From: Rhizoctonia solani | Taxonomy: Eukaryota > Basidiomycota > Agaricomycetes > Cantharellales > Ceratobasidiaceae | Direction: 5' to 3' | Assembly: GCF_016906535.1 (NCBI RefSeq) | Contig: NC_057378.1 | Coordinates: forward strand, 558,001-622,000 | DNA: 64,000 nt | In this document: positions 3,658 to 11,534 of the stretch, piece after piece | Numbering within the stretch: the first letter of the stretch is position 1 | Layout of the letters: every line of letters starts with the position of its first letter | The notes under the pieces: generated by a model | What the model saw: only the letters and a program-made list of their open reading frames with translations | What the model was told of the DNA's origin: nothing | Databases searched by the model: none | Program-made: the position numbers and the translations under genes

Positions 3658-5721
3658 ATCACATAGACCAGATAGACATTTAGACTGTACATCATGCTGT
3701 TTACTCCTCTCCTCGCACTTGCCACCTATGCCGCCGCCGCTCCAGCCGGTACTAGCTCCAGCCTGTCTGTCGCTCCCACATCTACATCCACACCTGCGAG
3801 CGCCACTGCTGCCACAGGCACCTCTGCAGCAGCAGTGCCCTCGCCGACAGTTCCATATGCATCGGACGACCCAAACTACTCGTACCTTGACCGCTACCAG
3901 AGCGGCACACCTGAGCCGATCATAGGTGCAGCCGGAGCGGACATCCTTGGACCGCAGAACATACCGCTGGAGAGGGAGAGTCCGGACTTCATGGCGCCTC
4001 CTACGACCGATAGCGGCTCTGTGTAAGTCGTTGGGTGCATGGAATCAGAACATAAGACTTACAGTGATGGGACAGGGAAAACGTGAAGTGGCCGATGGCG
4101 ATATCGCACAACCGAGTGCAAGACGGAGGATGGGCTCGTCAGCAGAACGGTATGTGATATGACGCAACAGAATGAACATGCGCTAACAGACGGACACAGA
4201 GCACGACATGCCGCTTGCGACTGCGATGGCAGGGGTGGATATGAGACTGAAGGCTGGGGCGATTCGGTGAGTGGCCAAACAATGTTACATTGCTCGAGTT
4301 TGTGGCTGAGATATGGTCCAGTGAGATGCACTGGCATGTTACTGCAGAGGTATGTATCGCACTAGTCAGCATTTTGCGCATATATTGAGTTTGATTCTGC
4401 AATCTTATAGTGGGGATATGTCATGGCTGTAAGTACCATCTGGCCACAACTAGCTCGTTATGCTGACATAAGCACCTCATCACAGGGTAGCTGCAGGGTC
4501 AACGTCGTCAATCAGCTCGGTCGCAACTATCTTGCCGATGTGGTATGCGCATACATAACCCATGCTTACTATTTGTATTGCTGACCATCGTGTTCGTAGT
4601 ATCCCGGTGACCTGTGGTACTTCCCAGAAGGCATCCCGCACTCCATCCAAGGACTCAACGACACTGCCGACGGATGCGAGTTCATGCTTGTATGTCCACA
4701 TCCTCTCGCCCATTCCGCTTCAGGTGCTAACCAAACATAGGTCCTGGATAGTGGGACTTTCAGCGAGGACTCTACGTTCTTGCTGACTGACTGGATGGCA
4801 CACGTGCCGAAGGAGGTGTTGGCGAAGAACTTCCGAGTCAACGCGTCTGCGTTCGACCACATTCCTGGCGAGCAGCTGTGGATCTTCCCGTCGGCTGTGC
4901 CGACCGAGAGCGTGGCAGAGGCGAACCCTGTGAGTCCGCAAGGAGAGGCGCTACTACCATACACTTTTGCTGCGAGCAAGGCACCGGCTACGAACGTGAG
5001 TGTGTGCGCTCTATGATGAATGTCTGAGGTGCTGAGGCGAGAGACGCAGGTGACCGGGGGGTCTGTGAAGGTGGTGGACTCGCGGACGTTCAACGTGTCG
5101 AAGACGATCGCGGTGGCAGAGGTGACTGTGGTGCCTGGAGGTATCCGTGAGCTGCATGTGAGTGAATGAGTGGCGAAGAATAGCAAAAGTAGCACAGAGC
5201 TGAAATGAATGGTACAGTGGCATCCTACTCAACCTGAGTGGACGTTCTATCTGTGAGTCAGGTTGGAGTTGCGCTTAGCAGTGACAGTAGCTCATGATCA
5301 TGTAGAGAGGGAACTGCACGTGTGACTGTGTTCGCATCTTCAGGCAACGCTCGCACCTTCGACTACCAGGCTGGTGACATCGGTAAGCCGTCTTATATGC
5401 TATGTGCACGATAACTTAGTCTCATGCGTACAAAGGATACGTACCACCGACGTTCGGTCACTACGTCGAGAACACTGGCAACACGACGATGAAGTACCTT
5501 GAGATCTTCAAGACTGACATATACGAAGACATCAGTCTGAACCAGTGGCTCGCTCTCACGCCGCCTGAGATGGTCAAGGTGAGTACCGAGCTCGATAAGT
5601 ATGGTGAGGGTACGGAGGAAGCTGAAACATGGTACAGGCACACCTGCAACTGGATGACGAGACGATCTCGCAGCTGCAGAAAGTGAAGCCGATTGTCGTG
5701 GGACCTGGAGAGTGGTAAATA
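3658..5721 (+). repeat. Left arm of 2,064-bp inverted repeat
   Basis: This arm is the reverse complement of 9471-11534 with no gap: every position x pairs with 15192 minus x. The start codons (3694 and 11498) and stop codons (5716-5718 and 9476-9474) obey the same sum. I found only two mismatches by eye, at 5593 and 5709, both near the 3' end. At both, the right arm agrees with the older copy at 1-1380. Identity stops 36 bases before the ATG and 3 bases after the stop codon, so the repeat is almost exactly one gene including all introns. Confidence 0.95.
3694..5718 (+). CDS. Oxalate decarboxylase (bicupin, secreted), copy A
   Basis: Manganese-dependent oxalate decarboxylase, predicted to be secreted, converting oxalate to formate and CO2. 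My spliced model has 13 exons (3694-4022, 4076-4149, 4200-4266, 4322-4349, 4411-4428, 4486-4542, 4600-4689, 4741-4995, 5044-5157, 5218-5252, 5306-5382, 5436-5578, 5638-5718) and gives 455 residues, a normal length. The acceptor of exon 9 could instead be at 5029, adding five residues. A signal peptide (MLFTPLLALATYAAAA) is followed by a Ser/Thr/Pro/Ala-rich linker. Cupin 1 has Mn ligands H160, H162, E166 (HWHVTAEW) and H205 (GIPHSIQG), with the lid motif SEDST at 229-233 carrying the expected Glu. Cupin 2 has H344, H346, E351 (HWHPTQPEW) and H390 (FGHYVEN). All ligands are present, so it should be active. It is near-identical to copy B but has its own promoter. Confidence 0.95.
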
Positions 5722-6124
5722 CGTCAATTAATCCGCCCCGTAATATTCAACCAAAGAGGCACAAACGAGCCAAATAAACATACTTGCAGATGTAATAACT
5801 ATATTATAATGTAATGAAATAGTTCCCTCTCTACACCTCTGCTGCAATAGGCCACGTGACCTAGTTTTCTTGATTACCACGCGAATTACGTTCAACTCCT
5901 GTTTCGGAATCTGTCAAATTTCGTCGCTCCCACCATATCAGCTGGCACAGACTCCCGAGCGGCCCGCCTAGCCGCTTCAATGTCCGAATCCTTGACAGTC
6001 ACCTGATGAACTTGTTGATCTCCTGAATGGGGTTAAATCAAACCTGGTCGCGAAGGAAGCGCATATAAATACCAAGGCTGAAGCAAGTCTGCGCTGGCAT
6101 TCATTTTCCTGTTTACTCCTCACT
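5722..6124. other. Spacer and promoter of the pectin methylesterase gene
   Basis: This non-coding stretch runs from the end of the left repeat arm to the pectin methylesterase start. It includes TATAAATA at 6064-6071, about 60 bases before the ATG, a typical position for an inducible fungal gene. I see nothing else recognisable. Confidence 0.5.
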
Positions 6125-8970: not shown

Positions 8971-9470
8971 TGTTGAAATTTGTGAAATCAGATCAGAATT
9001 TCAACATACAGAACTTGTTCATGTTGTTATACTAACTCATGTAACATCTATTTGTTCATTTCACTTCATTTGTTTCTGTTATCAATCACGAAAGTCCATT
9101 GACCAGGTACTCATCCTGCTCTTTTCCCATTTGCCCCCTGTGTGTCAGCGTGTGTGATATATATGTGGCTCAATCACGGAGCTGTAGTCCAGCAGGTGCT
9201 TGTGATCTATATCAATCGTGTGTTAATGCTCTGAAAGCCGTACGGGAGTTGCGCGGTCCCAGTGTATGGGAGCACAGGTCAATAAGACGCTATATGAGGG
9301 ATGAAACTAGGTTCTAACATCCATAAGGTACGATGTCGTTGAGTGAAAATCGGAGATAAATATATACAACGTATTTTTATTAGATACACTAGTAGTAAGC
9401 TACGCCGATTATAGTTCTTAGACAAATAACTAGTCTATTTGATTGCTAATTTGTGGCGACTTGAATTGCC
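8971..9470. other. Spacer between repeat R5 and right inverted-repeat arm
   Basis: AT-rich spacer with no recognisable gene. It lies downstream of the oxalate decarboxylase on the minus strand and so includes its 3' flank, which is unrelated to the 3' flank of copy A. Confidence 0.4.
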
Positions 9471-11534
9471 TATTTACCACTCGCCAGGTCCCACGACAAT
9501 CGGCTTCACTTTCTGCAGCTGCGAGATCGTCTCGTCATCCAGTTGCAGGTGTGCCTGTACCATGTTTCAGCTTCCTCCGTACCCTCACCATACTTATCCA
9601 GCTCGGTACTCACCTTGACCATCTCAGGCGGCGTGAGAGCGAGCCACTGGTTCAGACTGATGTCTTCGTATATGTCAGTCTTGAAGATCTCAAGGTACTT
9701 CATCGTCGTGTTGCCAGTGTTCTCGACGTAGTGACCGAACGTCGGTGGTACGTATCCTTTGTACGCATGAGACTAAGTTATCGTGCACATAGCATATAAG
9801 ACGGCTTACCGATGTCACCAGCCTGGTAGTCGAAGGTGCGAGCGTTGCCTGAAGATGCGAACACAGTCACACGTGCAGTTCCCTCTCTACATGATCATGA
9901 GCTACTGTCACTGCTAAGCGCAACTCCAACCTGACTCACAGATAGAACGTCCACTCAGGTTGAGTAGGATGCCACTGTACCATTCATTTCAGCTCTGTGC
10001 TACTTTTGCTATTCTTCGCCACTCATTCACTCACATGCAGCTCACGGATACCTCCAGGCACCACAGTCACCTCTGCCACCGCGATCGTCTTCGACACGTT
10101 GAACGTCCGCGAGTCCACCACCTTCACAGACCCCCCGGTCACCTGCGTCTCTCGCCTCAGCACCTCAGACATTCATCATAGAGCGCACACACTCACGTTC
10201 GTAGCCGGTGCCTTGCTCGCAGCAAAAGTGTATGGTAGTAGCGCCTCTCCTTGCGGACTCACAGGGTTCGCCTCTGCCACGCTCTCGGTCGGCACAGCCG
10301 ACGGGAAGATCCACAGCTGCTCGCCAGGAATGTGGTCGAACGCAGACGCGTTGACTCGGAAGTTCTTCGCCAACACCTCCTTCGGCACGTGTGCCATCCA
10401 GTCAGTCAGCAAGAACGTAGAGTCCTCGCTGAAAGTCCCACTATCCAGGACCTATGTTTGGTTAGCACCTGAAGCGGAATGGGCGAGAGGATGTGGACAT
10501 ACAAGCATGAACTCGCATCCGTCGGCAGTGTCGTTGAGTCCTTGGATGGAGTGCGGGATGCCTTCTGGGAAGTACCACAGGTCACCGGGATACTACGAAC
10601 ACGATGGTCAGCAATACAAATAGTAAGCATGGGTTATGTATGCGCATACCACATCGGCAAGATAGTTGCGACCGAGCTGATTGACGACGTTGACCCTGCA
10701 GCTACCCTGTGATGAGGTGCTTATGTCAGCATAACGAGCTAGTTGTGGCCAGATGGTACTTACAGCCATGACATATCCCCACTATAAGATTGCAGAATCA
10801 AACTCAATATATGCGCAAAATGCTGACTAGTGCGATACATACCTCTGCAGTAACATGCCAGTGCATCTCACTGGACCATATCTCAGCCACAAACTCGAGC
10901 AATGTAACATTGTTTGGCCACTCACCGAATCGCCCCAGCCTTCAGTCTCATATCCACCCCTGCCATCGCAGTCGCAAGCGGCATGTCGTGCTCTGTGTCC
11001 GTCTGTTAGCGCATGTTCATTCTGTTGCGTCATATCACATACCGTTCTGCTGACGAGCCCATCCTCCGTCTTGCACTCGGTTGTGCGATATCGCCATCGG
11101 CCACTTCACGTTTTCCCTGTCCCATCACTGTAAGTCTTATGTTCTGATTCCATGCACCCAACGACTTACACAGAGCCGCTATCGGTCGTAGGAGGCGCCA
11201 TGAAGTCCGGACTCTCCCTCTCCAGCGGTATGTTCTGCGGTCCAAGGATGTCCGCTCCGGCTGCACCTATGATCGGCTCAGGTGTGCCGCTCTGGTAGCG
11301 GTCAAGGTACGAGTAGTTTGGGTCGTCCGATGCATATGGAACTGTCGGCGAGGGCACTGCTGCTGCAGAGGTGCCTGTGGCAGCAGTGGCGCTCGCAGGT
11401 GTGGATGTAGATGTGGGAGCGACAGACAGGCTGGAGCTAGTACCGGCTGGAGCGGCGGCGGCATAGGTGGCAAGTGCGAGGAGAGGCGTAAACAGCATGA
11501 TGTACAGTCTAAATGTCTATCTGGTCTATGTGAT
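9471..11534 (-). repeat. Right arm of 2,064-bp inverted repeat
   Basis: This is the reverse complement of 3658-5721, ungapped and nearly identical. The two arms are separated by 3,749 bp (5722-9470). Sequences outside the arms are unrelated. Confidence 0.95.
9474..11498 (-). CDS. Oxalate decarboxylase (bicupin, secreted), copy B
   Basis: Mirror copy of the gene at 3694-5718. Each exon boundary is 15192 minus the copy A coordinate (first exon 11498-11170, last exon 9554-9474). It encodes the same predicted secreted bicupin with all eight Mn ligands and the SEDST lid. The one coding difference I found, at the position pairing with 5709, gives CCT-GGC-GAG instead of CCT-GGA-GAG and is silent. 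The other difference I found falls in an intron. Introns are equally conserved, so the arms are recent or have been homogenised by gene conversion. The upstream DNA is different, with no TATAAAAG, so expression may differ from copy A. No frame break is seen. Confidence 0.95.

What the first reader, a model, noticed from the sequence alone, without database searches (positions are those of the whole stretch)
3658..11534. Near-perfect 2.06-kb gene-length inverted repeat of oxalate decarboxylase
Two complete oxalate decarboxylase genes face away from opposite ends as an ungapped inverted repeat (x pairs with 15192-x), with only two mismatches found by eye, introns included. The third copy at 1-1380 is clearly older, with diverged introns. 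So either the second duplication is very recent, or gene conversion keeps the arms identical. Large palindromes of this kind are unstable and can drive inversion or copy-number change of the 3.7-kb centre.
Basis: seen in the sequence. Interest (0 to 1): 0.75.

Follow-up and report, generated by a model that had tools for sequence, protein, structure and literature searches.

The report
Gene copy overwritten by its neighbour
Two oxalate-degrading enzyme genes that lie as mirror images in a crop-disease fungus are almost identical because one was most likely overwritten recently by the other through DNA repair copying, while the DNA around them stays old and different; the process is well known in flies but gives here a clean natural example of one enzyme under two promoters.

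Summary
In detail: 3658-5721 and the reverse complement of 9471-11534 differ at 3 of 2064 positions. The window lies in Rhizoctonia solani XN, contig C9. The pair belongs to a 56-kb array of six close oxalate decarboxylase copies (F, E, C, D, A, B). Upstream, A groups with C (100/100) and B with E (99/98), and A+B is rejected (p-AU 3e-7); in the body A+B are sisters (100/100). B switches from class II to class I sequence 26-36 bases before its ATG. Its 3' flank is again old: it matches that of C (63% over 254 bases), not that of A. So B is an old locus whose body was copied from A. Shorter mosaic tracts among the other copies suggest recurrent ectopic gene conversion. The two promoter classes have diverged almost to chance but keep one block with CTATCTCTGTTC, 557-581 bases upstream of the arm start, at all six copies. 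It works like the inverted Drosophila Amylase and Hsp70 pairs: a new member of a known kind, of moderate interest.

The parts
3658..5721 (+). Arm A: oxalate decarboxylase gene A (13 exons; ATG 3694, stop codon ends 5718), inferred donor of the conversion
9471..11534 (-). Arm B: oxalate decarboxylase gene B (ATG at 11498, stop codon ends at 9474), inferred recipient; body identical to A except 3 bases
2458..3657 (+). Class I upstream region of A; the only other match found in the genome is upstream of copy C (74%)
11535..12734 (-). Class II upstream region of B; the other matches found in the genome are upstream of copies E, F and D
11525..11534 (-). Left junction of the converted tract in B: 10 bases shared with A (3658-3667), C and D; upstream of it B is class II, downstream it is class I
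9474..9486 (-). Right end of the tract: last polymorphic site of the final A=B run is 9486; 9483 matches copy D instead; A-B similarity ends just after the stop codon
9200..9445 (-). 3' flank of B, 63% identical over 254 aligned bases to the collinear 3' flank of copy C; not similar to that of A
3067..3094 (+). Conserved upstream block of A with CTATCTCTGTTC
12096..12123 (-). Same block upstream of B
1..1381 (+). 3' part of copy D (full length C9:557317-559381); mosaic relative to A; two one-base frameshifts (exons 8 and 9)
6125..7838 (+). Centre of the repeat: pectinesterase gene with introns (start and stop read by eye)
   Evidence: PF01095 on 2 of 4 pieces; one above the curated cut-off, one just below
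8529..8973 (.). Dispersed repeat in the centre; near full-span copies at 91-96% on C14, C8, C12 and C15; transposon-like

Best explanation
Gene B was recently overwritten by gene A through ectopic (non-allelic) gene conversion. Shown: six paralogues lie in both orientations on 56 kb; their bodies are still similar while most of their flanks are not; B carries an A-type leader and body between a class II promoter and a 3' flank that is an old relative of copy C's. Inferred: a break in or near B was repaired using A, 3.7 kb away, as template, and copying ran to both limits of homology between A and B (26-36 bases before the ATG, and the stop codon), which would be why the tract has the length of the gene. 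Shorter tracts among the other copies suggest that this recurs. The outcome is one protein under two long-separated promoters. The promoter classes retain one common upstream block, a candidate regulatory element (function inferred only).
For: Arms differ at 3 of 2064 bases. Introns of A/B match at 662 of 663 positions, the other 14 pairs at 71-90%. Upstream, A-B identity is 0.45 against 0.43 for one shuffled control, A-C 0.73, B-E 0.68. Upstream tree: A+C 100/100, B+E 99/98, A+B rejected (p-AU 3e-7); body tree: A+B 100/100, A+C without B rejected (3e-9), B+D+E+F rejected (3e-8). 5' junction at a shared 10-mer in the leader; of the next 26 bases B matches A at 26 and C at 25, unlike D/E/F, which gives the direction A to B. 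3' flank: B-C 63% over 254 bases, collinear (E 8e-16), C-D 68% over 136 (E 5e-15), A-B no better than shuffles (193 of 200 reach it); so B differs from A on both sides and a single crossover does not explain it. Mosaic tracts elsewhere: 11 of 15 pairs have an identical run with permutation p <= 0.0024; PHI p = 0.001 without B. In another strain a protein with D-type N-terminus carries the same retained, A-like intron 5 as an A-type protein (P0004 and P0003, contigs of equal length).
Against: Upstream groups were named after seeing BLAST results on the same data. The 3' flanks do not repeat the promoter classes: B and D (class II) resemble C (class I) there, A shows only weak traces (3-11 of 200 shuffles reach it against C, D, F), E and F none, so the older history of the array is itself tangled. 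Sawyer-type runs are also lengthened by exon constraint; the A-B pair itself is only p = 0.012, C-F 0.011, A-F and B-F 0.06; the D-F run lies in the shared class II leader and is ancestry, not exchange. No reads were available, and Illumina polishing of near-identical arms may have altered the exact count of 3.
Confidence: 0.92

Rival explanations
1. Recent inverted duplication of gene A: a 2.06-kb piece was copied and inserted 3.7 kb away in opposite orientation.
For: Near-identity over exons and introns, exact register.
Against: The copy would have to land between an old ODC promoter of class II (best match E, 74-75%) and an old ODC 3' flank (match to C), in the right register on both sides. 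Replacement of an existing gene body by homology explains this without coincidence.
Confidence: 0.03
2. Assembly or polishing artefact: the true B body differs from A and was replaced by A's sequence in the assembly.
For: The isolate is multinucleate with heterozygosity 2.56 (unit sign lost in the held text); polishing used short reads; C11 and C13 share a long near-identical block, so haplotype handling may not be perfect.
Against: PacBio reads average 11.5 kb and the whole structure is 7.9 kb; the other four copies differ from A by 6-10% over the body and were kept apart. A 6-kb piece of the window and both upstream regions have no second copy at allelic identity.
Confidence: 0.04
3. Purifying selection alone keeps the copies alike.
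For: dN is 0.002-0.009 and dS 0.14-0.27 in the nine other pairs of the five intact copies, so the protein is constrained.
Against: A-B introns match at 662 of 663 positions and A-B dS is 0.006; selection on the protein does not act on these.
Confidence: 0.005

Closest known systems
Drosophila Amylase pair Amy-p/Amy-d (review PMC3924832, passages read)
   Same: Linked paralogues in palindromic orientation; homogenisation confined to the gene, flanks evolve independently.
   Different: Here six copies in both orientations, 12 introns homogenised with the exons in A/B, B shows a mapped promoter/body junction, and the organism is a basidiomycete.
Drosophila Hsp70Aa/Ab and Hsp70Ba/Bb inverted pairs (PMC3924832, passages read)
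   Same: Mirror-image gene pairs kept alike by ectopic gene conversion.
   Different: Evidence there comes from orthologue comparison and shared polymorphism between species, not available here.
Bicupin oxalate decarboxylases (TIGR03404; Bacillus OxdC 1j58 as nearest solved structure)
   Same: Enzyme family of both arms (562 bits against a cut-off of 254).
   Different: Nothing unusual in the protein was seen.

Membership tests
Oxalate decarboxylase (bicupin, TIGR03404) | Full-length bicupin match above curated cut-off | tested here: met
   562 bits, cut-off 254.2, model 2-367 of 367
Oxalate decarboxylase (bicupin, TIGR03404) | Two HxH...E...H metal sites and the lid glutamate of OxdC | tested here: met
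   read from the alignment to 1j58 (HWH...E, HSIQ; HWH...E, GHYVEN; SENST/SEDST); that these are the metal and lid residues is recalled
Oxalate decarboxylase (bicupin, TIGR03404) | Decarboxylase activity | not testable with these tools
   no assay
Ectopic gene conversion (concerted evolution) of linked paralogues | Body and flank give conflicting, each well supported, genealogies | tested here: met
Ectopic gene conversion (concerted evolution) of linked paralogues | Identity covers introns and synonymous sites and ends where homology between the two copies ends | tested here: met
Ectopic gene conversion (concerted evolution) of linked paralogues | Further mosaic tracts among the paralogues | tested here: met
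Ectopic gene conversion (concerted evolution) of linked paralogues | Paralogues within a species closer than orthologues between species; shared polymorphism | not testable with these tools
   only proteins of other strains at hand
Recent inverted segmental duplication | Flanks unrelated to the family, or duplicated together with the gene | tested here: not met
   flanks of B are old members of the same gene family and differ from those of A
Retrocopy | Loss of introns in one copy | tested here: not met
   12 introns with GT..AG ends in each of the five intact copies

The most novel reading that the evidence does not exclude
In this array promoter and coding region are evolutionary units of their own: gene bodies are repeatedly exchanged by conversion beneath two old promoter lineages, which have diverged to near chance apart from one conserved block. 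Conversion thus rewires which promoter drives which enzyme variant and can put one and the same enzyme under two regulatory programmes, without any promoter being moved.
Probability: 0.35. Interest if true: 0.55.

Novelty: new member of a known kind. Interest (0 to 1): 0.4.

Why it matters
It turns 'recent duplicate' into 'old locus with a new body', which changes how copy number, age and orthology of this gene family are read. Because A and B encode the identical protein under different promoters, they form a natural test of what each promoter does. Short-read RNA-seq can tell them apart only by their untranslated ends and two exonic bases, so published counts of induced oxalate decarboxylase genes in this species may merge loci (inference). 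A conserved upstream block, found with at most one mismatch only at these six loci, is a ready target for a regulatory test.

Tried and rejected
Rejected: purifying selection alone (introns identical); retrocopy (introns kept); a single reciprocal crossover (B's similarity to A ends on both sides, with old, different flanks there); transfer from C rather than A into B (B-C body 93%; A-B 3 of 2064 different). A whole-genome search with A's arm found 28 matches (19 candidates scored); six, all on C9:513-570 kb, are full or nearly full length at 90% or more; C4, C6, C10, C11 and C13 hold diverged relatives at 65-78%, apart from one 38-base match at 92% on C13.

Corrected on re-check: from global alignments (0.39-0.51 over 600 bases) I first took the 3' flanks of all six copies to be unalignable. 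Local alignment shows B-C and C-D 3' flanks to be collinear old relatives (an 83-base C-D match was already). This supports conversion, and I raised its odds from 0.90 to 0.92 and lowered duplication from 0.05 to 0.03. Whole-genome searches with 300 bases of the D and B 3' flanks found only themselves, so these flanks are not dispersed repeats at that sensitivity, which also misses the B-C and C-D matches.

Led nowhere: no fungal DNA collection was available, so other strains were read only as 12 proteins fetched of 120 listed of 7882 matches. The first motif pattern had a spacing error of mine and found nothing; the corrected one found 6 of 6 copies and no other place. The patterns were made after seeing the alignment. 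Paper searches: 'oxalate decarboxylase' with 'gene conversion' (2 papers, neither opened); with white-rot, gene duplication and tandem (0 papers); 'Rhizoctonia solani' with 'oxalate decarboxylase' (36 papers, 20 listed, two opened by passages); 'Rhizoctonia solani' with 'gene conversion' (31 papers, 20 listed, only PMC7884421 opened, passages and section 6); fungal ectopic conversion and promoter divergence (20 and 102 papers, 12 listed each; only PMC3924832 of them was opened by passages, and PMC7884421). In what I saw none reports this pair. The Rfam scan of the window gave one tRNA only. No structure prediction was run.
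Full report
WHERE IT IS. The window is C9:558001-622000 of a genome of 40,703,773 bases in 16 contigs. The chromosome-scale assembly of Rhizoctonia solani XN is 41,104,060 bases, of which 400,287 lie outside its 16 chromosomes (PMC7884421, section 6 read); the difference is exactly 40,703,773. XN is of group AG1-IA (passage). I take the source to be strain XN.

THE OBSERVATION. The two arms, 3658-5721 and 9471-11534, are ungapped reverse complements with 3 mismatches in 2064. Chance is out of the question. Each arm is one gene: 36 bases of 5' leader, 13 exons with 12 GT-AG introns of 50-61 bases, and a 453-aa protein. 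The protein is a bicupin oxalate decarboxylase (TIGR03404, 562 bits; nearest solved structure Bacillus OxdC). Two mismatches are synonymous and one is intronic, so the proteins are identical. The genes converge on a 3749-base centre, which holds a pectinesterase gene and dispersed repeats.

THE ARRAY. A genome search with arm A gave 28 matches. Six are close copies, all on C9 between 513 and 570 kb: F (513.2-515.3 kb, -), E (534.2-536.2, -), C (538.2-540.3, -), D (557.3-559.4, +), A (561.7-563.7, +), B (567.5-569.5, -). A seventh, diverged copy lies at 505.5-507.4 kb (65-67%). A, B, C, E and F have open frames with GT and AG at all 12 introns. D has two one-base frameshifts, in exons 8 and 9. 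The annotators' protein for D (P0008) is out of frame or lacks residues there, and a protein of another strain with the D-type N-terminus (P0002) looks intact in these exons, apart from seven extra residues before exon 9.

FLANKS AGAINST BODY. Pairwise introns match at 71-90% in 14 of 15 pairs and at 662 of 663 positions for A-B. Synonymous divergence is 0.006 for A-B and 0.14-0.27 for the other nine pairs of the five intact copies. Upstream the picture differs. Over 1200 bases A matches C at 0.73 and B matches E at 0.68, while A and B match at 0.45, against 0.43 for one shuffled control. In the whole genome the upstream region of A has one further match, at C, and that of B has matches at E, F and D only. 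Trees of 800 upstream bases give A+C (100/100) and B+E (99/98) and reject A+B (p-AU 3e-7). Trees of the body give A+B (100/100) and reject A+C without B (3e-9) and B+D+E+F (3e-8). The groups were named after the BLAST results, so these p-values are descriptive.

DOWNSTREAM. Global alignments of 600 bases after the stop codon show little (0.39-0.51), but local ones do: B and C share a collinear 3' flank (63% over 254 aligned bases, E 8e-16), as do C and D (68% over 136, E 5e-15). A and B do not (their best 48-base match is reached by 193 of 200 shuffles). A has weak, nearly collinear traces against C, D and F (3, 8 and 11 of 200), and E and F show nothing clear. So the 3' flank of B too is an old flank of this gene family, and not that of A. 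These groups are not the promoter classes, since C (class I) goes with B and D (class II); the deeper history of the array is tangled and I do not resolve it.

THE JUNCTION AND DIRECTION. At its 5' end, B reads as class II (like D) up to the stretch ATCACATAGA, which A, B, C and D share, and from there as class I: of the 36 leader bases B matches A at 36 and C at 35, but D at 24 of 35, E at 20 of 35 and F at 21 of 33. So the leader and body of B came from A's side, not the reverse. At the 3' end B equals A up to 5706 (A coordinates), then has the D base at 5709, and A-B similarity ends just after the stop codon. The tract is about 2.03-2.06 kb. Of the three differences, one is private to B (3705), one is private to A (5593), and one (5709) may lie beyond the tract. 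Two changes in some 2 kb is a very young age; I give no years because no rate was measured.

RECURRENCE. The other copies are patchworks. A and E share 3996-4148, intron 1 included. A and D share 4482-4695, while D and E share a quite different sequence for introns 4-5. B, C and E share 5563-5646. A permutation test on longest identical runs gives p <= 0.0024 in 11 of 15 pairs; the four others are A-B 0.012, C-F 0.011, A-F and B-F 0.06 (A-B has little power, since almost all its sites agree). The D-F run lies in the common class II leader and is ancestry. The PHI test on A, C, D, E and F gives p = 0.001 (140 sites). Exon constraint also lengthens such runs, so the tracts that include introns weigh most. 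Proteins of other strains fit this: P0003 and P0004 (contigs of equal length) both keep an identical intron 5 of A type, although P0004 has the D-type N-terminus and D of XN has the other intron type; P0001 combines D-type residues with residues of C/E/F type. These are annotators' models and were read as proteins only.

THE SHARED BLOCK. The two promoter classes are not unrelated. About 540-600 bases upstream of the arm start, in nearly the same register, the best class I/class II match exceeds all 200 shuffles in 7 of 8 pairs (C-B is reached by 5 of 200). The block holds CTATCTCTGTTC in all six copies, 557-581 bases upstream of the arm start. With its left part the pattern occurs, with up to one mismatch, at these six places and nowhere else in the genome; the 12-mer alone occurs 13 times, six of them here, against 6 for the reversed control. 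The patterns were made from the alignment itself. The promoters are therefore probably old homologues that have lost resemblance nearly everywhere else. This fits old loci with rejuvenated bodies, and makes the block a candidate regulatory element; no function was tested.

MECHANISM. Repair of a break in B from A as template, by ectopic gene conversion, accounts for both ends of the tract, the direction, the introns and the mosaics. It also explains why the repeat has the length of the gene: the gene is all the homology that A and B still share. Duplication needs a landing in register between an old ODC promoter and an old ODC 3' flank. Artefact is unlikely given 11.5-kb mean reads but cannot be excluded without reads.

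COMPARISON. Palindromic Amy and Hsp70 pairs of Drosophila behave alike; for Amy, homogenisation is confined to the gene and flanks are independent (PMC3924832, passages). [quoted passage not shown] solani are reported up-regulated by AG1-IA on soybean (PMC5587340, passage) and two of AG-3 against Serratia (PMC4546130, passage); which loci these are is unknown to me. I rate the find as a new, well-resolved member of a known kind.

Noticed in passing
C13:40-445 kb and C11:1.65-2.06 Mb of the same genome (L016-L019, L022, L023, L028, L029): The two contigs share a long inverted block: matches of 95-99.9% at five sampled stretches of C13 (40-46, 49-50, 310-320, 425-435, 435-445 kb), but none on C11 for C13:1.000-1.006 Mb. 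Either a very large recent duplication or two nuclear haplotypes kept apart in the assembly.
   Followed up: partly
window 1-1381 (copy D): Copy D has two one-base frameshifts; either a young pseudogene or sequencing error.
   Followed up: partly
C9:538229 and downstream (3' flank of C), window 9200-9445 and 1382-1560 (3' flanks of B and D): 3' flanks of B, C and D are related to each other although C has the other promoter class; C may itself be an old chimera.
   Followed up: partly
   Followed up: no
   Followed up: no
window 12001-15000: Marked AT skew (0.15-0.24) over 3 kb; elsewhere in the window only 40001-41000 reaches 0.16 on the positive side.
   Followed up: no
window 36379-36473, - strand: A tRNA gene, the only Rfam match in the window at gathering thresholds.
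   Followed up: no
P0020 and P0005 (proteins of another strain): A C-type N-terminus (residues 26-29) occurs in a protein on a contig of the same length as that of an A-type protein, so A and C types seem to coexist there.
   Followed up: no
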